From a virus, in IMG/VR virus record IMGVR_UViG_3300044974_000389, positions 1 through 30,628 of that record: 30,628 bases of DNA, one strand, 5' to 3'. Positions within the stretch are counted from its first letter, which is position 1. Every line of letters starts with the position of its first letter. Below, in pieces: positions 1 to 30,021 of this stretch. The position numbers were made by a program, and so were the translations under genes. The notes under the pieces were generated by a model. It ran no database searches, was not told the DNA's origin, and was given only the letters and a program-made list of their open reading frames with translations.

Positions 1-125
1 AATTCAGCGTCTATCAATTTCTCCAGACCTCCATTGTAAAGCATATCCATGTACTGCTCAAAGGTTTTCTCCTCCGCAGCAGTAGCGCCTGGCATTTTTA
101 TAGTTACCTTACAGGGTTTCGCCAT
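1..125 (-). CDS. N-terminal fragment of an unidentified small protein, cut by the window edge
   Basis: A minus-strand frame starts at the ATG whose complement lies at 123-125 and stays open to the edge of the window, giving 41 codons. The start overlaps the TAA of the ferritin-like gene (TAATG), the same coupling used elsewhere in this cluster, which supports it as a real gene. The visible part begins MAKPCKVTIKMPGATAAEE and continues into an acidic, probably helical stretch containing YMDMLYNGGLEKLID. I recognise no family, and the C terminus is missing. Confidence 0.6.
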   Translation of the reverse strand, partial: MAKPCKVTIKMPGATAAEEKTFEQYMDMLYNGGLEKLIDAE

Positions 126-616
126 TAGAACAGTTTTTCTTCGAGAAGCAATAACTTGAACTTATCCTTTCCGTCTACATCCTCAAGCAGGTTTAGCTTG
201 TCGCTGTATTCCGCAACAGACTTGGTCTGTATCAATCGGAACTGCTGCAAGAAGTCAAACGTGCAAAGGTCCATGTTGAAGAGTTTCTTAGACGTTTCTT
301 CATACGCCTCGTACAAATCGTATTCGATCTTGTATGCCTCTTCCAACACCTCGAGAAGTCCGGAGAAGTCTACCTGCGGCTTGGGTACGGTAGGAAGCGG
401 AACAGTGATATTCCAGTCTACCAAATACTTTTCAATCTTAGCCGCGTGTTCAAGTTCGTCCTGAGACTCAGCAGCAAAGAAAGCTGCGGCCTTGAAATAT
501 CCAACACCCTGACACCAGTTGCTGGCGGCACGATAGAAGTAAAACGCATCCATCTCGTCCAAATGACGTGGGGCTAATAGGTCTACTACACCTTTATCTA
601 AACTATGAGGTTTCAT
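125..616 (-). CDS. Ferritin-like four-helix protein with an incomplete ferroxidase centre
   Basis: This 163-residue protein aligns by eye with bacterial non-haem ferritin (FtnA, about 165 residues) over most of its length. Shared landmarks are the helix A ending in NWC, the GYFKAAAFF segment, the SQDELEHA helix B motif and the CTFDFLQQF start of helix D. Iron site A ligands appear kept as E21, E54 and H57, and the helix C glutamate of site B as E98. Helix D reads QTKSVAEY where FtnA has EQHEEEKLF, so the FtnA E126 and E130 equivalents are Ile and Ser. Ferritins oxidise Fe2+ and store ferric mineral; with site B damaged, this one may bind iron or protein without full ferroxidase activity. It starts 7 bases after the giant gene ends, so it is probably co-transcribed with virion genes and may be a virion component. 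Fold assignment is fairly secure, function is not. Confidence 0.75.
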   Translation of the reverse strand: MKPHSLDKGVVDLLAPRHLDEMDAFYFYRAASNWCQGVGYFKAAAFFAAESQDELEHAAKIEKYLVDWNITVPLPTVPKPQVDFSGLLEVLEEAYKIEYDLYEAYEETSKKLFNMDLCTFDFLQQFRLIQTKSVAEYSDKLNLLEDVDGKDKFKLLLLEEKLF

Positions 617-622
617 GTTTTA

Positions 623-3600
623 TTACGGGCAACCGTCAGTTTTATTTGTTATCACACCCGCTTCTTGCAGGCGCTTATTAATCTTTGGAATATTGTCGTA
701 AATATACTTCAACTTTGGGTCACGACCCAAAATTTCATCAATAGCGTCCCTTGCTCCAGGTGTTTTATCCTTGAGTTTATAGTAGTTGTCAACCAACTCG
801 CTTATGCTTGCTTTGACCCCGGATGGCTTCTCTGCCTTTGGAGTCTCAGTTTTTGACTCAACCTTAGGCTGTGCCTTGGGAGTAGCCCCAAATTCATCTT
901 GCAGAATCTCGTCAAATTGCTCTTTAAGCTTAGAGGTTAGCCCATTGTACCAATCTTGACTACTAACGATATTATTTACAGCAGTCTGAGGATCAGTGCC
1001 AGAGGCAATCGCTTGCTCAACAGCATCTGCCGCATTCTCCATCAAAGACTGAATCTCAGCATTTGTTCTTGGTGTAGGTTCACGCAGCTCATTGGGGATC
1101 GAGTTAGTTCCGTATTCGGCCTGGGTTTCGTTTAGCTTACCTTGATCGGCGTAAGACTCATAATAACCTTTAACGCCTTCACTGTCGCTATTGATAATTA
1201 CATAGTCAAGAACTTTAACATCAGCAGATTCCAAAGCATTCATCATTCGCTTAAAACCTGATGAAAATTGATCTTGATTTGAATAAAATATGATTCCAGT
1301 TCCGATTCCGGCCTCAGCAATGAATGATGTGGTCTCGTTGTAGTCAAACGCTTTCTTGAAAATGTAATTCCCTATGATTTCGTTCCTATTGTTCAGCAAT
1401 AACATTCCATGCTTTGGCAATGCTGTGAACCTTAACTGCATCAAGAACTGAGAAACATCCATTGAGTTGCTTATAGAACCCATAGGGCCGGACAGAATCT
1501 CTTGCTCGTCCATCATCTCAACCTTGAGCGCTTTATTGTATTCCTCTATGCTCTCTTTGGTTATATCTCTATTTTTAACAAAAGATATATCGTCTGGATA
1601 AAGGTGTACGTATTGCTTTTTATACGTATCCATGATTACGTGCTCAAGCTCGATCCCTAGAGGACTCAAAACATTATCAACTCTATTGGTGAGTTGTATA
1701 TCCGGTCTACTTGCCACTAACGATCCCGAAGGATGGTTGTGAACAAGGTAAACTTTCTTCGACTTGAATTTCTTTGCCCCAGCTAAAACAAGTCGAGGGT
1801 CCACGATTGTTGATGTAGGACCGCCCATGCCCAGGAACTGGATGTGGGCCTTTCCATTCTTATCAACGTGTACAGCGAAGGCGTGCTCAACAGCCTTGTC
1901 TTCAAGTTTACGCATGATGTGTGCTACATCTTCCGCATCCTTGACCTTGACACTTCCGTTAAACTTGATTTGCTTGTATTTGTTCCATACAGCCTTTACT
2001 GTATTACCGACTCCTCCCTCTCGTACACCCTGCCCCCGTACTCCACCACGTTCACTATACGGCATATTTCCGGTTTCGGATACAAACGGGCCGGCGGCTG
2101 TGTCTGTTCTTGTAAGTCCTTCGTTTGGTCCATCTGTTATTTTTTTATTTTCAATTAAATTTTCTACCGCCTTTACGAGTTCTGGGTTTGAACCGTCTTT
2201 TTTAGCCTTGTGGTAAAGCTCGGATATTAAATTTGCATTTATATCAGACAGGTTTGATTGATCAAAAACGATTACCTCCTGTCTTTGAGACGGTAATTTT
2301 AGACGAGTAAAATTATTCAAAAGACCATCATAGCCCATTCCCTCCAATGCTCTTCTGAACTGTTCATTTTCCTTTAATTCCTGAGGATAAGTCTTCCCGA
2401 CATAGGCCCCATTTAAAACCTCTTTAGGTATTATTGAAGTCCTTGTGCTTGATGATTTTCTCCACGCATCTATCAACCTGTCGTTAAGATCTTTTGTAAC
2501 AACAGTATCAATGTCAAAAAGATTAGATGTTTTTAAAGACAATTCTTTTAACACACCTTTGCCCTTCGTGTACATCTTGCCAATTATCTCGTTGGGCGAT
2601 ATGAATATGTCTTTTTTAGGCAGCTCTTCAACTGGCTGGCCTCTGAAATACTTTGTGGACTTTGTCTTTTCAAATAAGGGTTCCACATCTAATCCTTCCA
2701 ATGCCTTAGCTGTCTCTTCTATGGATGACAATGGAGATCCATAGCCTACTTCTTGCTCTTGAACTTTTATGGCCTTAGGATTTCTAACCGCGTAAACCAT
2801 TTCTCCAGCATTACCGGCGTCCTCTCCATATATCACATCAGCACTGTCAAACTCTTCTTTGAATTTATTAAACTCCTCAAGACCAATAGCTCGCTTCATC
2901 TTTCCAAACGTGCCTTCTCTGCCCCTGGTTGTGAAGTTCCTATCCTCATCAAACATACTTTGATCAATGGTAAGGAACGGTTGCCCCATGCCATTGTCTG
3001 GTATCCCGGCGTCCTTTAACTTTTTATTCCATTTAGCCAAGTCAAGGACCTTGTTTTTGGAGATGTTTGCCTTAATGATGTTTTTTCCAAATACCCCCGC
3101 ATACTTTTCGTTTTCAGCAAAGTATTGTACGCCGTTGTAATCTTGAACATATTCGCCCGGTAATCCCCTGTAGCCAACAGCTTCTTTTACATTTTGCCCT
3201 TCGTAACCTACTTTTTGTTCTTGAGCTTCTTGCGTAGTTCCTTCAAGTGGACTAATGCCATAACCGCCTTGTCTTCCTTGCTCAGGTTGTTCACGTTCAA
3301 CTTCTTGGTAGAATTTTTCATAATCCTCTATTGTTTTTACTTTTTCGTCTTCACTTAATGACTCATAATACTCAACGAGCTCATCTTCGCTTAGGTTGCC
3401 CAAATCATTGTTTCTGATGGCGTCTCTCATCTGCGACTCGTACTCGTACCTTGCCGCCTCGTCCATGTCATTAGTCAGCTTATCACGCATCTCGATGAGC
3501 TCGTCCTCCATTTGAGACTTGTTCTCAAAAGAAGCAAGCACGTCAAGAACTTCGTTGATAGCATCCTGTTCGTCGAACACAATTCCGCCAAGCTCTGGTA

Positions 3601-6600
3601 AATCTTCAAGGGCGATCAGATCCACGCTACGACCATTGTCAGAAATAAAACCCGCTCTTTTTGCGGCGGCTATTTCATCCTTACCGGCAAGTTCGGACTG
3701 GCTTGTCATCACCTTGCCGCCTCGCATGAAATAAAGAAGAACGCTTGCCCTTAGACCTAGCAATGAATCTTGGGCCATTGACTTGGCTTCTTTCAGTTTG
3801 TCGTTACGCTCCTTGTTAAACTTGCGGTCAACATCTCTTCTGGCTACGACTTTACCATTTTCCTTGCTTGTCAGACTGATGTTTCCGCCCTTTACGTTTA
3901 CAACAGCAAACCCAAGTCTTTCCGCCTCATCCTTGATCTGATTCAACAGATTACCACCCATTGGCTTTCTGCTTTTGGGTATCTTGTTGTATCGGTTTTT
4001 CTTAGTGATAAGCTCGTTTACCTGTTCGTTTACGCTTGGACCTTCCTCGACAGGGGCTTCTTCAGTTACAGTTTCCTCCGGAGTTACCTCGGCAACATCT
4101 TCTTCCTCCACTTCGGGCGCGAAATCCTTTGGTAAGAACCCTTCGTTGTTTTCCGGGTTCCAATCACTCGTTCTGCCGTCAGGCGATACTAACTTCCAAA
4201 CAGATTTGCTAGTGTCCTCAATGGTGTATTCTTCGTATCTACCATTGTAGTTTCGATACACTATGTCGCCTTTTCCAAAATTACTTAAACGCTTTCCGTC
4301 CTTCTCGCTTGTCCGGTTAAGCATACTATCGATTCTAAAAGCAAAGCTCGATGAGGCTCTATACGATTTGAATTTTTCAATTGAGTCAACAAATCCCTCT
4401 CCCATGTATTGAATCTCGTACTCAAGGAAATCAGCAACTTCCCTGGTGATTCCTTGCTCCTCAACCATCTTGTTAGCCGCATACTCATACCCATCCCCGA
4501 CTAGTGCATCAGGATTGTTCTTGCTAAACGTGTTGTAGTAATCAAACATTTGTTTGAACAGCCCGTAACTCTTTTCGTAATTCAAAGGTGGTACAGCCTC
4601 GAATCCCTCGTATACATTTGCGAACTCTTCTATCCTGCCTTGCATGGCATTTTCAGTCAAGTTCTTTACTCTTGTGAAACCTTTTTTGCCAGGGCCTAAA
4701 ACTTGATAATGAGGAGCCCAATCGTTTTCCCCTTTAATTATTTGACCTACCTTAAATTGATCGGCGCTTTTAAACTTTTTATCCTCGACGGTAGCAGCGG
4801 CTGATGGCGCTGTTTCTTCTTTTTCTACAGTTGCCTGTACGGGTTTTGTTTCCGTAGGCTTTTCCTCCGCCTCAAACAACGAGGCTATCTTACCCTTGCG
4901 GGTTGGTTTTTCTTCTGTCGCTTTAGCACCAGGGAAGAAAACCACTTCTTGATTAGATTGATTTTTGTATTTGCGATCAATCAATCTAATCGTTTCGCCA
5001 TTCGGTGTTGTAACATCTACAAAGGACGAACTTGGAGTTGATTCGTACTTAACGGTATAGCCGTCGGCTTCGTAGGTGTTTACCTTCTGTTCTTTTCCGT
5101 CTACCTTTTCGTAATTAGGATTACCTCGCTTTTCATCAAAAGAAAAATTGCCCTCTTGTATTGCTTTTTTCTCTAGTGATTCAATTTCTTTTTGAAATAT
5201 GTTGACTTCATTTCTTGACAGAGCACCTTTAGCATTACCAATCAAGTCTTTTACTTTGTCTCTAAACTTATTTGCTACATACTCTATCTTGTCTCTTTGT
5301 TTTTTAGGTTCAGCCTTTTCCTCTCCTTTGAACAAACCTGCAAGACGTTCCTTACGGCTTGGCTTAGCAGGCTCGGTCTTTTCAGGCAGGGCTGCCGGCT
5401 TGACTTCTTCAAACTCAGTCTCTATTCCGCCAACATCTTTTCTTGATTGATCAAGAGACTTTCGGTATGATTCAAAGTCATATCCCGCAAGGCCGGCTGT
5501 AGCCTTCTCGTATTGCGCGGCAAGAGGTAATAACTTTTCAGGCAACTCTTCCGCGTCAACGATTTCCCCGGTCTTGTTGTCCGTGATGATTATCTCATTA
5601 TCGTAGTCCCAATCAATGGAATATCCATTGTTGCCAAACTCCATTTCAACATTAGCCATCTCATCTGTTATGGGCTTCATGTTGGCTTCGACTTCTTCCG
5701 GGGCGATCTCGGGAACTACTTCCTCTTGTGCTTGAAGAACTCCACTTGCTGGAGCCTCTTCTTTGCTTGGAGCTTCGACAGGTTTGGCTTCGACAGGTTC
5801 TTGCCCGACTCCGACTTCACCTGATACCCGGATTTGGTTTTCTTTATCATATTTTAATGAGTTTAGATTTTCAAGCAGTTGTTTTGAATTACCCTGCTGC
5901 CCCTCGCGTATCTGCAACGTCCTTCCATCCTCCGTAGTGATGTTTACCGATACTATCTTGCCGTTCTTCTCTGCGTAATTATTGAGAGTAGCGTTCTTGC
6001 CGGCGTAGTTGATCGTTGCACCCTTTTCAAGAGTAGGGGTAATAAGCGTGTTCTGATTCTCGATGTTCATCTCCCCGACGATTCCCTCGTCAGTCTCGAT
6101 GCCCATCTCACGGATCTTTTCAGCAACTCCCTCTCCCTTTTCAATGATAACGCTTCTTCCGTTGTTGTATTCTATCTCGTAATCACCGTCCTCGTTGATA
6201 AAGAAACTAGCATACTCGTCACCTACCTTTACTCGCTGAGGTGTAGTTGATGTGCCTACTGACTTAGCATCAATACCATTTTCACCAAGCATCAGGATCT
6301 CTTCGCGCTCGTTCTTCAATTTTTCGATCTGAGCGTTCGTGATAGGGTCTTTAAGACCGCCTTCCTCCAGAGTTCTTATCTGTTGGGTTATACCGAATGC
6401 CCGCGCTTGCTTGGGGCGTGGGAGGTTTTTCCAGTTGGGATGAGCCGACAAAGCTTGGAAGTCTTCGCGAGGACCTTTCAAGTCCTGCTTCACCTTAGCA
6501 ACGTCTGCGCTATTGGTTGATGCCGCGATTATGCCATCCGCATTTTCAGCGGCCTCAAGCATAACGTCTTCCGCAAAGTTGGAGGCTCCTACCGGTCTTC

Positions 6601-8875
6601 TAAAGAAATTACCCGCCTTACCACCTATCAAACCACTCAATGCGGCGTCCTTGTACCCACGGCCAGAATTTAAGTCCTTAAAGTATTCGGTTTCACCCAG
6701 GTAGTTGATAATCTCTTTGGTGGCATTATCAACCTTTTGTTGAGTAACTTCTTCGCCCGCTTCTTTCAATCCAGACTTGAGATATGATGCGGAAGATTCC
6801 GCAAAAGAATCCCTGAATGCTTGCGATAAACTTTTACCGTTTGCCAAATCATTCAGTACAGACTTCCTGAAAACGCTAGGCTCAAAGTATTTAACGTCAG
6901 GTATCAATCCTTCAGCCAATGACACGGCGATAGCGGTTGCTGTAGAAGCTGCCGCAGCTTGCCTTGGAGACATCTTGTGGGTATTGATGGCTTCCTCGTA
7001 TGCGTCAGCTTCTGTTACAAGCCATGACGTTGCGAACGTAGCCCCATACTGAGCCATCTTAGATGCCCCTGCAAACGTGCCGCCTAAGGCGAATGTGGCA
7101 AGTGAAGCCAGCGCGTTACCTCCTAGCGAGGTCAAGTATTGGATGTTTGATTCTGATTCAATCGTCGGGAAGTCTACCCTCTTTTCCATGCGGTAGTTTT
7201 CCAGTCCGTCATAAATCTCGTCAAGGAAGTTGTATTCCGTATTCCCGGTCACAAGGTCTTCCAATATCTTGGGTATCTCCAGGACATTGATGGCCATGTT
7301 TCCGATTCCAGCAGCAAACGTATTTGCAAGTTCGCCCGGGGCATATATCATTTTCATCATCGGAGAAGCGTTGTCCCACCTCTGCTTTCCAGCCTCCTGC
7401 TCCTTCTCGATTCGATCCTTTAATGTCTTGTATTCAGAATAGTAATTTATGTTGTCCTGGTTTAAAGCACCAAGCACCTTGAGTGATAAAGTAGACTGAC
7501 CAAGAGAGTTATACGCAGTCTTAGCCTGTTCCAACTTAGCCACGTTCTCGTCGGTCATTCTTGAACGAACCTTGAGGTCTTCGTAGTCGGATTGCAACTT
7601 ATTGCTGCGCTCTTGTAGCTTGCTGAAATCTGGGTAGTTCGCCTTGTATGCGTTGTATTCGTCCTTGTACTCTTGGCTGATTCTATTAAACTCAGCCTCG
7701 TAGTCCTCACGCTTCATGGTGGAGGACTTCGCATTCAGATCCTGGATAGCCTTATTAAATTCAGCGTCTCTTTGATTCCATGAAGCAAACGACTCCTTCG
7801 CCTTTTGCTCGAGTCTCTTGTATTCGGCATCTATAGCCGCACGCTCTTGATTCAACGCGATAACCCCGGCGTCAAACAGGCGGGAGTCAATTGAAGCCTC
7901 TATCTTAGAATATTCGTTGATGCCTGACTTTTGCTTGTCGTAGTTCCTCTTGATTGCGGCCATCTTCAACTGAATAGCCCTGGTCTCCATAGAGTTTAAC
8001 CACTCTTCGTTCTTGGCGCTTCTGTCTGTGCTTGACTTTAGTTGAGAGTATTTATTAAACTCAGCCTCACCTATTTCGGGTCTCGTCTTCTTCATGTAGT
8101 CGAAATAGTCGTCCATCAAAGCGGAAACCATCTCGCCTCTCTTGCCTTCTTTCTCGATGGTGGTTCCGTTGGGAACCTCTCTTTCGCCAAGAGCAATTTG
8201 AAGATCCGTTAAATCAGTCGGAGCAACAGTAAAGTATGGGAAAAACTTATCCGACTTGTTGCCGGCATTGTTCATGTAACTATCTATCTCCTCGCCAAAC
8301 TGAGCTTCGTATTCATTGGCTATCTTCTTATCTATATCCTCTTTGGACAGAATGTTTACACCCTGATCCTCAAGAGCTTTTTGACTTTTCTCAAACGCGG
8401 CCTGGTTGACCTTTTTAATAGCGTCCTCTGAGGTAAAATCAGTTCCTTTTTCTTTGGACACAGAAGCTACCGGGGATTGAATGAACTTGCCCTGCTCTGC
8501 TTTCTTCTCGACTTCTTTTACAGTCTTGATAGGCTGAGGAATCTGCGCCTGTGTTGTTTCAGACGGCATCTCCTCTCTACGAAACGTAATGTCTTGCTGC
8601 TTCTTTTGGGGCTCTTTCTTCACCCCTTTCATTACCGGCTCCCCGCTAACGAGGGTTTCGGTCATTACTTTCTGGCCAAAACTCGGCGCAGAAGGCTTTG
8701 TAGGCTGCTCTTGAGGCGAACCAGAAACGGGTTGCCCACCCCCTTTTTTTTTTAAACCAGAGATAAACGCATCGCGAAACTTGCGAAGGTCGTCTTTGCT
8801 TGCGCCAGTGCTTGCGTATTTAACAAGCCCTTTTTTCAGTTTTTCCTTTTCGTCCGGAGTTAATCCTACTGGCAT
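623..8875 (-). CDS. Giant multidomain (polyvalent) protein, probable ejected virion protein with ART-like and RadC/JAMM-like domains
   Basis: A 2750-residue protein. Residues 1-100 are basic, then Pro/Gln-rich. Roughly 290-500 is charged and probably coiled coil. Ala/Gly-rich hydrophobic segments near 512-540, 578-630 and 638-665 could insert in membrane. Small beta-rich units joined by Glu/Pro/Ala linkers fill about 850-1650, followed by charged helices to 1880. Next come two ADP-ribosyltransferase-like modules: YRG at R1903 with GEMVYAV at E2025, and YFRG at R2078 with GYDG (2181-2184) and QEVIVFD at E2200. A RadC/JAMM-like domain has E2330, H2379, H2381 and D2392, an exact H-x-H-x10-D. A second domain of the same outline (about 2486-2560) has YSNQDQ where the metal ligands should be. 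The gene sits where T7 has gene 16, last of the ejection proteins, so packaging and injection is my inference. An alternative is a non-virion antidefence polyvalent protein. No lytic transglycosylase or RNA polymerase motif was seen. Confidence 0.7.
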   Translation of the reverse strand: MPVGLTPDEKEKLKKGLVKYASTGASKDDLRKFRDAFISGLKKKGGGQPVSGSPQEQPTKPSAPSFGQKVMTETLVSGEPVMKGVKKEPQKKQQDITFRREEMPSETTQAQIPQPIKTVKEVEKKAEQGKFIQSPVASVSKEKGTDFTSEDAIKKVNQAAFEKSQKALEDQGVNILSKEDIDKKIANEYEAQFGEEIDSYMNNAGNKSDKFFPYFTVAPTDLTDLQIALGEREVPNGTTIEKEGKRGEMVSALMDDYFDYMKKTRPEIGEAEFNKYSQLKSSTDRSAKNEEWLNSMETRAIQLKMAAIKRNYDKQKSGINEYSKIEASIDSRLFDAGVIALNQERAAIDAEYKRLEQKAKESFASWNQRDAEFNKAIQDLNAKSSTMKREDYEAEFNRISQEYKDEYNAYKANYPDFSKLQERSNKLQSDYEDLKVRSRMTDENVAKLEQAKTAYNSLGQSTLSLKVLGALNQDNINYYSEYKTLKDRIEKEQEAGKQRWDNASPMMKMIYAPGELANTFAAGIGNMAINVLEIPKILEDLVTGNTEYNFLDEIYDGLENYRMEKRVDFPTIESESNIQYLTSLGGNALASLATFALGGTFAGASKMAQYGATFATSWLVTEADAYEEAINTHKMSPRQAAAASTATAIAVSLAEGLIPDVKYFEPSVFRKSVLNDLANGKSLSQAFRDSFAESSASYLKSGLKEAGEEVTQQKVDNATKEIINYLGETEYFKDLNSGRGYKDAALSGLIGGKAGNFFRRPVGASNFAEDVMLEAAENADGIIAASTNSADVAKVKQDLKGPREDFQALSAHPNWKNLPRPKQARAFGITQQIRTLEEGGLKDPITNAQIEKLKNEREEILMLGENGIDAKSVGTSTTPQRVKVGDEYASFFINEDGDYEIEYNNGRSVIIEKGEGVAEKIREMGIETDEGIVGEMNIENQNTLITPTLEKGATINYAGKNATLNNYAEKNGKIVSVNITTEDGRTLQIREGQQGNSKQLLENLNSLKYDKENQIRVSGEVGVGQEPVEAKPVEAPSKEEAPASGVLQAQEEVVPEIAPEEVEANMKPITDEMANVEMEFGNNGYSIDWDYDNEIIITDNKTGEIVDAEELPEKLLPLAAQYEKATAGLAGYDFESYRKSLDQSRKDVGGIETEFEEVKPAALPEKTEPAKPSRKERLAGLFKGEEKAEPKKQRDKIEYVANKFRDKVKDLIGNAKGALSRNEVNIFQKEIESLEKKAIQEGNFSFDEKRGNPNYEKVDGKEQKVNTYEADGYTVKYESTPSSSFVDVTTPNGETIRLIDRKYKNQSNQEVVFFPGAKATEEKPTRKGKIASLFEAEEKPTETKPVQATVEKEETAPSAAATVEDKKFKSADQFKVGQIIKGENDWAPHYQVLGPGKKGFTRVKNLTENAMQGRIEEFANVYEGFEAVPPLNYEKSYGLFKQMFDYYNTFSKNNPDALVGDGYEYAANKMVEEQGITREVADFLEYEIQYMGEGFVDSIEKFKSYRASSSFAFRIDSMLNRTSEKDGKRLSNFGKGDIVYRNYNGRYEEYTIEDTSKSVWKLVSPDGRTSDWNPENNEGFLPKDFAPEVEEEDVAEVTPEETVTEEAPVEEGPSVNEQVNELITKKNRYNKIPKSRKPMGGNLLNQIKDEAERLGFAVVNVKGGNISLTSKENGKVVARRDVDRKFNKERNDKLKEAKSMAQDSLLGLRASVLLYFMRGGKVMTSQSELAGKDEIAAAKRAGFISDNGRSVDLIALEDLPELGGIVFDEQDAINEVLDVLASFENKSQMEDELIEMRDKLTNDMDEAARYEYESQMRDAIRNNDLGNLSEDELVEYYESLSEDEKVKTIEDYEKFYQEVEREQPEQGRQGGYGISPLEGTTQEAQEQKVGYEGQNVKEAVGYRGLPGEYVQDYNGVQYFAENEKYAGVFGKNIIKANISKNKVLDLAKWNKKLKDAGIPDNGMGQPFLTIDQSMFDEDRNFTTRGREGTFGKMKRAIGLEEFNKFKEEFDSADVIYGEDAGNAGEMVYAVRNPKAIKVQEQEVGYGSPLSSIEETAKALEGLDVEPLFEKTKSTKYFRGQPVEELPKKDIFISPNEIIGKMYTKGKGVLKELSLKTSNLFDIDTVVTKDLNDRLIDAWRKSSSTRTSIIPKEVLNGAYVGKTYPQELKENEQFRRALEGMGYDGLLNNFTRLKLPSQRQEVIVFDQSNLSDINANLISELYHKAKKDGSNPELVKAVENLIENKKITDGPNEGLTRTDTAAGPFVSETGNMPYSERGGVRGQGVREGGVGNTVKAVWNKYKQIKFNGSVKVKDAEDVAHIMRKLEDKAVEHAFAVHVDKNGKAHIQFLGMGGPTSTIVDPRLVLAGAKKFKSKKVYLVHNHPSGSLVASRPDIQLTNRVDNVLSPLGIELEHVIMDTYKKQYVHLYPDDISFVKNRDITKESIEEYNKALKVEMMDEQEILSGPMGSISNSMDVSQFLMQLRFTALPKHGMLLLNNRNEIIGNYIFKKAFDYNETTSFIAEAGIGTGIIFYSNQDQFSSGFKRMMNALESADVKVLDYVIINSDSEGVKGYYESYADQGKLNETQAEYGTNSIPNELREPTPRTNAEIQSLMENAADAVEQAIASGTDPQTAVNNIVSSQDWYNGLTSKLKEQFDEILQDEFGATPKAQPKVESKTETPKAEKPSGVKASISELVDNYYKLKDKTPGARDAIDEILGRDPKLKYIYDNIPKINKRLQEAGVITNKTDGCP
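8739..8753 (-). other. A10-G5 homopolymer run near the start of the giant gene
   Basis: On the coding strand TTT is followed by ten A and five G (codons TTA AAA AAA AAA GGG, about residues 40-45). It contains T-TTA-AAA-like and A-AAA-AAG heptamers that favour -1 slippage. A -1 shift would terminate after about 32 further codons, giving a product of about 76 residues; +1 also ends within about 30 codons. It may cause real slippage or just sequencing error; the long uninterrupted frame supports the reading as given. Confidence 0.5.
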
Positions 8876-28567: not shown

Positions 28568-29221
28568 TTATGGTATAATCTCCGGGAATATTTCTTTTTT
28601 CTCACGCCATATACGGCTATAGTGCTCTGGCTGTATGCCCAAGTTCTCTGCGCGAACCGAAAACGTGATTGCCTTTTGCAAGGTTATACTCACCTCATCA
28701 TTCATGATTCGACTACGAGCATCTACAAGCGTTTGTCTCCAACTCTCAAGCCCCGCTTGGAAGTTCTTATCGTCATTAGACCTATCAACAGGCTGAGTCA
28801 AAAGTGCTCTTTGCAATGCGGATATTCGGATGTCAGCCGTACTCATAATTGAGTAGTCCTCCGAGCATTGTAGGCGGGTGAATACGATGTAACGCTCCAC
28901 CGCCCAGTCCACATTCATCATGCAGAGCTGGGCGTACCCGTTGTCCGGATCCGTATCATCAACCATGATATTCAGCTTGTTCAAGGTATATCGTTTGCGC
29001 TGGTTGATGTCCGGATACGCGTCCTTCACGGGAGTACCTGGAGCGAACATATATATGAGATAGCGTACAATCTTGTCAGCGCTAACCCCTTCAGGAAGAT
29101 CGTCAGATCTGTCGAGAATGTGGGCTTGACTAGCCAGGTCCGAGAAGCGGTAGATTACCGACTCGTCATCCGGGATGCCTTCAATGTTGTACGATATTTT
29201 ACTAAAGTCTAATTTTATCAT
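28568..29221 (-). CDS. Unidentified 217-residue protein next to terminase, candidate packaging partner
   Basis: A mostly helical protein with an N-terminal short beta part (MIKLDFSKISYNIEG), then YLIYMFAPGTPVKDAYPDIN followed by QRKRYTLNKLNIM, a pattern (hydrophobic helix, PGTP turn, charged helix with KR) that I recall from proteins next to terminase genes in Bacteroidota phages. The remainder is helix with Asp/Arg pairs (about 95-205). It starts in an ATGA overlap with the tandem GroES-like gene and lies just before terL, so a small terminase or packaging accessory role is possible. No helix-turn-helix is certain, and the two smaller proteins upstream are rival TerS candidates. Confidence 0.5.
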   Translation of the reverse strand: MIKLDFSKISYNIEGIPDDESVIYRFSDLASQAHILDRSDDLPEGVSADKIVRYLIYMFAPGTPVKDAYPDINQRKRYTLNKLNIMVDDTDPDNGYAQLCMMNVDWAVERYIVFTRLQCSEDYSIMSTADIRISALQRALLTQPVDRSNDDKNFQAGLESWRQTLVDARSRIMNDEVSITLQKAITFSVRAENLGIQPEHYSRIWREKKEIFPEIIP

Positions 29222-30021
29222 TCTTCAAATGCAAGTATTACTCGAGGCTGGAACCGAACAAGGTCAGTGCTGTTCGCAAGTGTTGAATCAAGAGCTATTG
29301 CAAATGTCTCTTTCAAACAAATAATATCTCCCTTTTTAACGTCACTATTTGTCCACACATCAGGCTCCCTGTATTTAGGTTTTCTAGACGGAACAACTTC
29401 TACTGATATTCTTGCTATTTTAGAATCAGGCAAAAACAAAGAGCCATACGTTCTGTCGTTTGGTATTCTCCTGCCTATGATATATCCGTTTAAACTAACG
29501 ATTTCATCATTTCTTTTTGCCGCAAAAATAGACCTTGCCGGGATCAGTAGATATGTTTTATCTCCTATGATGATACCGCCCTCCTTCTCTTCAAGCCGTT
29601 CCCTGGAGTACGAAGAGTCAAACCAAACCTCATCCCCAACCAAGCCATCAAACTCGCAATCAAAGTCCCATCCGTTATAACCAAGTTCTTTTTCAGGCAA
29701 CTTTACGATTTTGCCCCGGCGAACCGCTTGCTTTGCTTCGTGGTTAATCTTGTTTGGATCAGCCTCCTTTTTCTGAGACATCATCATCTTCATGTACTCC
29801 TTCCTGGCATTCTCGTCCTTGTACCTAGATTTTTTCAGAGCATTAAGGGCGGACATCATTTCGTTTATAGAAAAGTCATCCACATGGTCTTTTACGCTAG
29901 TGACAAGTTTCAATTTACCTCCATTAAACTCCACCTCATCTTCTACCATGGTGCGAATCTCAACCAGGCATTCTCCGTTTAGTAGTCGTAAACTGTCTAT
30001 GTTGATGCTGTCTAAATTCAT
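29218..30021 (-). CDS. Tandem GroES-like (co-chaperonin-type) protein
   Basis: A 267-residue protein that appears to contain two GroES-type beta barrels. Unit 1 has a first strand with NGECLVEIR (15-23), a loop ending GGKLKLVTS (34-42) at the mobile-loop position, a helical insertion (about 50-99), then RRGKIVKL (101-108), LVGDEVWFD (127-135) and TYLLIPARSIFAA (156-168). Unit 2 repeats the order with LNGYIIGRRI (177-186), GSLFLP (193-198), ISVEVVPS (205-212), VKKGDIICLK (228-237) and VILAFEE (261-267). The GKIV/VGDEVWF/YLLI-x-x-x-x-IFA order matches GroES. A role helping GroEL fold capsid or terminase subunits is plausible, as with T4 gp31, but is inferred. Two barrels in one chain recall chloroplast Cpn20. 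An alternative is a non-chaperonin barrel protein. Confidence 0.55.
   Translation of the reverse strand: MNLDSINIDSLRLLNGECLVEIRTMVEDEVEFNGGKLKLVTSVKDHVDDFSINEMMSALNALKKSRYKDENARKEYMKMMMSQKKEADPNKINHEAKQAVRRGKIVKLPEKELGYNGWDFDCEFDGLVGDEVWFDSSYSRERLEEKEGGIIIGDKTYLLIPARSIFAAKRNDEIVSLNGYIIGRRIPNDRTYGSLFLPDSKIARISVEVVPSRKPKYREPDVWTNSDVKKGDIICLKETFAIALDSTLANSTDLVRFQPRVILAFEE

What the first reader, a model, noticed from the sequence alone, without database searches (positions are those of the whole stretch)
2267..3180. Two ADP-ribosyltransferase-like modules in tandem
Module 1: YRG (R1903), YFAENEKYAGVFG, E2025 in GEMVYAVRNP. Module 2: YFRG (R2078), IFISPNE, GYDG at 2181-2184, E2200 in QEVIVFD. 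Both follow the Arg / aromatic-Ser / Glu order of ART enzymes and the GYDG-n-E-VVF ending of ART domains in polyvalent proteins. They differ in sequence, suggesting different targets or one regulatory copy. They are joined by a linker with a repeated VGYGSPL-type motif (compare GYGISPLEG upstream).
Basis: partly seen in the sequence, partly recalled or inferred. Interest (0 to 1): 0.7.

Follow-up and report, generated by a model that had tools for sequence, protein, structure and literature searches.

The report
Swappable paired ART-like modules, phage protein
A giant protein of an uncultured phage carries two domains side by side that look like ADP-ribosyltransferases (enzymes that tag host molecules using NAD); they sit in a slot that related phages fill with other effector domains, and the second travels between phages as a unit.

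Summary
Module 1 (M1, aa ~1898-2042) is very probably an ART-fold domain of the ART-PolyVal kind. Aligned with 37 relatives it gives a confident AlphaFold2 model (pLDDT 84) whose structural matches are nearly all ART-superfamily proteins. A sister phage (G012) has an undoubted ART-PolyVal-family domain in the same slot, between flanks 82-90% identical in DNA. Its R2078, S2093, D2183 and E2200 are invariant in two orthologues (64-72% identical) inside otherwise unrelated giant phage proteins. The catalytic assignment needs correction: the modules follow the PolyVal H-Y-D layout with Arg for His (M1 R1903-Y1918-D2013; M2 R2078-F2091-D2183 or E2200); E2025 is not at the catalytic Glu position, which is V2027. 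The linker hint led to the most novel part: M2 is bracketed by a short motif pair (IEETAKAL ... YHKAKxDGSNPELVKAVE) that brackets different modules in three other relatives. Tandem ARTs in polyvalent proteins are known (up to 12 copies). The swap junctions and the M2 family look new. Activity, targets and injection are untested.

The parts
623..8875 (-). 2750-aa polyvalent protein, after the portal/structural gene run
   Evidence: synteny with Elemovirus, where a 3694-aa 'structural protein' holds the same place
2144..3182 (-). DNA block exchanged relative to sister phage G012 (holds M1, linker, M2)
   Evidence: blastn homology to G012 stops at 3183 (90%) and resumes at 2143 (82%); G031 homology resumes at 2160; GC 39.6% against 43-44% in the flanks
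2750..3184 (-). Module 1, ART-PolyVal-like (R1903, Y1918, D2013; V2027 at the catalytic Glu position)
2699..2722 (-). 5' junction motif IEETAKAL, preceded by the VGYGSPL linker
   Evidence: motif pair shared with G084, G083, G008, G028, G023
2219..2698 (-). Module 2, ART-like by motif (R2078, F2091/S2093, D2183, E2200)
   Evidence: orthologues in G084 (72%) and G083 (64%); block test
2147..2218 (-). 3' junction motif LYHKAKKDGSNPELVKAVENLIEN
1628..1942 (-). RadC/JAB domain following the cassette
   Evidence: Pfam PF04002 E=1.2e-19

Best explanation
Two divergent ART-fold domains lie in an exchangeable effector slot of a giant polyvalent phage protein that is probably carried in the virion and delivered with the DNA. 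Each would bind host NAD+ in the split-sheet ART pocket and move ADP-ribose onto host macromolecules early in infection, to favour phage takeover or blunt a defence. M1 belongs to the PolyVal H-Y-D layout with Arg for His; M2 is a separate mobile cassette with R-F/S-D-E. Shown: sequence positions, the slot swap, M2's presence in other giant proteins, M1's modelled fold. Inferred: the M2 fold, catalysis, packaging, injection, targets.
For: G012 carries in the same slot a single domain that an ART-family profile matches at E=3.5e-29 with itself left out; 27 of the 38 sequences of alignment A5 match Pfam ART-PolyVal (best 1.9e-14), 2 match PARP. M1 aligns in register with this family, and MAFFT put the family rows on M1 unprompted in the tandem. 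AlphaFold2 of M1 with the family: pLDDT 84.1, pTM 0.79. PDB matches are nearly all ART superfamily: AcrIF11 6kyf, ParT, PARP2, diphtheria toxin, exotoxin A, MbcT; NatT, PARP1/2, tankyrases at Z 5-6. Viral matches include 'PolyVal ADP-Ribosyltransferase'. The alignment starts put R1903 on the catalytic His of PARP1, PARP2, TNKS1/2 and diphtheria toxin, if there is no gap in the first nine residues (catalytic residue numbers from general knowledge). M2 core residues are invariant in 3 of 3. Delivery: the same place in cultured Elemovirus holds a protein annotated as structural; polyvalent proteins are held to be injected (PMC5512222).
Against: No sequence profile matches M1 or M2 significantly. 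The M1 model used a family alignment, so it is partly circular; without it the tandem gave pLDDT 38 and no match. PDB Foldseek E-values stay above 0.001 and VIA Z is 5-6, below the level the tool calls safe. M2 has no model and fails the full-profile test. M1 has Arg for His and Val at the Glu position, so it may be weak or inactive.
Confidence: 0.68

Rival explanations
1. Only M1 is an ART; M2 is another small alpha/beta module (for example a nuclease or binding domain) whose motifs resemble ART by chance.
For: M2 is not separated from background by a full-length ART profile; hhalign of the 3-sequence M2 family gives only 3.6% probability; the same junction pair also brackets a ParB-like module in G028, so the slot does not demand an ART.
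Against: Five ordered motifs fit, 1 of 2000 shuffles as good; the global hhalign score of the M2 family (11.0) exceeds all 40 column shuffles (max 8.3) and lines up the strands unprompted; R2078, S2093, D2183 and E2200 are invariant.
Confidence: 0.22
2. Degenerate ART folds: one or both modules have lost catalysis and act as binding or regulatory domains.
For: M1 has Arg for His and Val at the catalytic Glu position.
Against: 5 of 38 family members share the Arg; D2013 is at the family's conserved Asp column; Glu-less ARTs such as PARP10 are active mono-transferases (general knowledge); M2 keeps Arg, Asp and Glu.
Confidence: 0.25
3. Not ART at all: chance motifs in a fast-evolving linker-rich protein.
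For: No significant plain profile hit; the single-sequence model failed.
Against: Slot-mate ART in G012, the M1 model and the M2 orthologues with conserved core.
Confidence: 0.06

Closest known systems
ART-PolyVal (Pfam PF18760; Tox-ART-HYD2 clade of Iyer et al. 2017)
   Same: M1: order of core strands, Y1918 and D2013 columns, location in a giant polyvalent phage protein, multiple copies per protein
   Different: Arg in place of His; lacks the N-terminal YSxYLDTIFPNSKVKD helix; below Pfam detection
AcrIF11 (PDB 6KYF), phage ART anti-CRISPR
   Same: Top PDB structural match of M1 (E 2.9e-3, prob 1.00); small phage ART with an Asp-based active site
   Different: Stand-alone anti-CRISPR; 9% identity; key residues H-F-H-D (PMC12421852)
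T4 Alt/ModA/ModB (R-S-E ARTs)
   Same: Idea of a phage ART that modifies host proteins early; M2 could be read as R-S-E
   Different: M1 is not R-S-E; no sequence similarity found
PARP / diphtheria toxin type ARTs
   Same: Fold of the M1 model; R1903 falls on the catalytic His position
   Different: No Glu at the catalytic position in M1

Membership tests
ART superfamily (fold) | Split beta-sheet ART fold | tested here: met
   M1 model pLDDT 84, matches nearly all ARTs; model partly guided by the family alignment. M2 not modelled
ART-PolyVal (PF18760) | Match to the Pfam profile at its cut-off | tested here: not met
   Neither M1 nor M2 matches; 27 of the 38 sequences in A5 match at E<=0.01
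ART-PolyVal (PF18760) | H (strand 1), Y (strand 2), D (late strand) active site | tested here: inconclusive
   M1 R1903-Y1918-D2013; M2 R2078-F2091-D2183; Arg for His also in 5/38 family members
ART-PolyVal (PF18760) | Embedded in a large multidomain phage protein with other effector domains | tested here: met
   2750-aa ORF with RadC domain
Alt/VIP2 R-S-E ARTs | R, S-T-S strand, ExE or QxE motif | tested here: not met
   M1: no S at strand 2, E2025 off the catalytic column; M2 has R, S and E but RxE
Polyvalent protein (injected effector) | Present in the virion and delivered with the DNA | not testable with these tools
   Only synteny with an annotated structural protein
Active ADP-ribosyltransferase | NAD+-dependent transfer | not testable with these tools
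   Needs biochemistry

The most novel reading that the evidence does not exclude
These phages build their giant injected protein from interchangeable effector cassettes joined by standard junctions: a short 5' motif (VE[ES]TAKAL) and a ~23-aa 3' motif (AYHKAKxDGSNPELVKAVEDLIGK), 72-91% identical in DNA among the four phages of the window's group, bracket unrelated modules there (M2, a YRG ART-like domain, a ParB-like domain, an unassigned domain). The junctions would serve as recombination joints for swapping effectors, much like polymorphic toxin cassettes but inside one virion protein.
Probability: 0.42. Interest if true: 0.66.

Novelty: new variant of a known kind. Interest (0 to 1): 0.52.

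Why it matters
If the modules are active, one phage would deliver two different ADP-ribosyltransferases in one molecule, and related phages would swap them for other effectors at fixed joints. That gives a way to find new phage effectors: read what lies between the two junction motifs. It also corrects which residues to mutate in any test.

Tried and rejected
Plain Pfam, PHROG, NCBIfam and PDB sequence searches of M1/M2: nothing useful. tblastn to phages and plasmids: none, or chance hits; the Listeria-labelled hit proved to be a helicase-like protein. Pattern scans for M1, alone and with G012: none. The first M2 scans of viral and genome contigs found nothing because of the words chosen; a hand-made FISPNE pattern found the orthologues. 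Genome contigs with the M2 alignment: none. Single-sequence AlphaFold of the tandem: pLDDT 38, no matches. M1 against M2 direct alignment: no similarity, so no recent duplication. No DNA repeat pair was found around the linker. The positional Elemovirus protein shows no clear sequence match to the polyvalent protein and no ART hit by the family profile, though a viral-model hit from an elemo phage structural protein appears weakly. G008 and G023 interiors: no known relative found; the G008 query typed there differed from the translated sequence in its first residues.

Full report
Setting. The window is a 30.6-kb virus record of IMG/VR. Portal and terminase resemble phrog_6547 and phrog_6681; the portal is 22-23% identical to Cellulophaga and Flavobacterium phages. 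The finding lies in ORF 623-8875 (-), 2750 aa, whose only Pfam domain is RadC/JAB at aa 2312-2416.

Module 1. Plain sequence searches fail. The terminase brought 80 relatives; their giant proteins were fetched. G012 matches the window protein at 87% over aa 1-1615 and 83% over aa 2245-2750, with flanking DNA 82-90% identical, but the stretch between window 3183 and 2143 is replaced by one domain, LYRG...KYFTPN...NLLDL...ADAIVG. That domain recruits a family of 57 loci; 27 of the 38 sequences in A5 match Pfam ART-PolyVal, and a profile without G012 matches its domain at 3.5e-29. M1 aligns with this family in register; family rows choose M1 unprompted in the tandem; a full profile separates M1 from all 700 controls. 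AlphaFold2 with the family gives pLDDT 84, and the structural matches are nearly all ARTs. The model is guided by the family alignment, so it is support, not proof.

Catalytic residues. In the family the conserved positions are H (33/38, else R), Y/F, and D (30/36) in the xDG strand; the Glu before the last strand is present in only 15/38. This agrees with the H-Y-D site described for ARTs of polyvalent proteins (PMC5512222). M1 therefore reads R1903-Y1918-D2013. The VIA alignment ends put R1903 on the catalytic His and V2027, not E2025, on the catalytic Glu of several PARPs, provided there are no gaps near the ends.

Module 2. A motif pattern found two orthologues: G084 (72% over aa 2039-2243) and G083 (64%), each inside a giant protein with no other similarity to the window protein. 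The G083 terminase is only 37% identical to the window's, so M2 has moved on its own or is unusually conserved. KYFRG, DIFISPNE, SNLFDID, MG[YF]DGLLNNFTRL and QE[VI]IVF are conserved. ART identity of M2 rests on ordered motifs and a weak profile-profile signal above shuffles.

Junctions. The C-terminal part of M2 matches other relatives. Two motifs, [VI]E[ES]T[AS]KAL and YHKAKxDGSNPELVKAVE, bracket M2 in three phages and different modules in G008 (YRG, ART-like by eye), G023 (unassigned, possibly ART) and G028 (ParB-like by eye). Among the four phages of the window's group (W, G008, G023, G028) the motif DNA is 72-91% identical while the interiors share nothing. G031 joins KRTPALASV directly to VENKKITDGPN, apparently an empty junction. 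G003 has neither ART nor RadC in this region.

Known and new. Several ARTs in one polyvalent protein are known, up to 12 copies (PMC5512222), and tandem ART-PolyVal domains occur in L155 here. New here, as far as these tools show: the M2 family, and the paired junction motifs around exchangeable modules.

Noticed in passing
125-616 (-): Phage-encoded ferritin-like protein directly after the polyvalent gene (Pfam Ferritin E=3.5e-19, Rubrerythrin 2e-5).
   Followed up: no
29218-30021 (-): GroES-like co-chaperonin signal (phrog_3188 E=3.4e-4) upstream of the terminase; Elemovirus has an annotated cpn10 in the same place.
   Followed up: partly
L128 (G008), L125 (G017), L127 (G010), L123 (G013): A second variant of the 3' motif, AYHNAVENGVEPELVAAVENAV, follows a hydrophobic helical segment in several relatives.
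   Followed up: no
L113, L114: Giant proteins of relatives carry an FHEGIHPVINIIRNT motif suggestive of a metallopeptidase domain.
   Followed up: no
L155 aa 199-403 and 428-575: A true tandem of two ART-PolyVal domains in another phage protein.
   Followed up: partly
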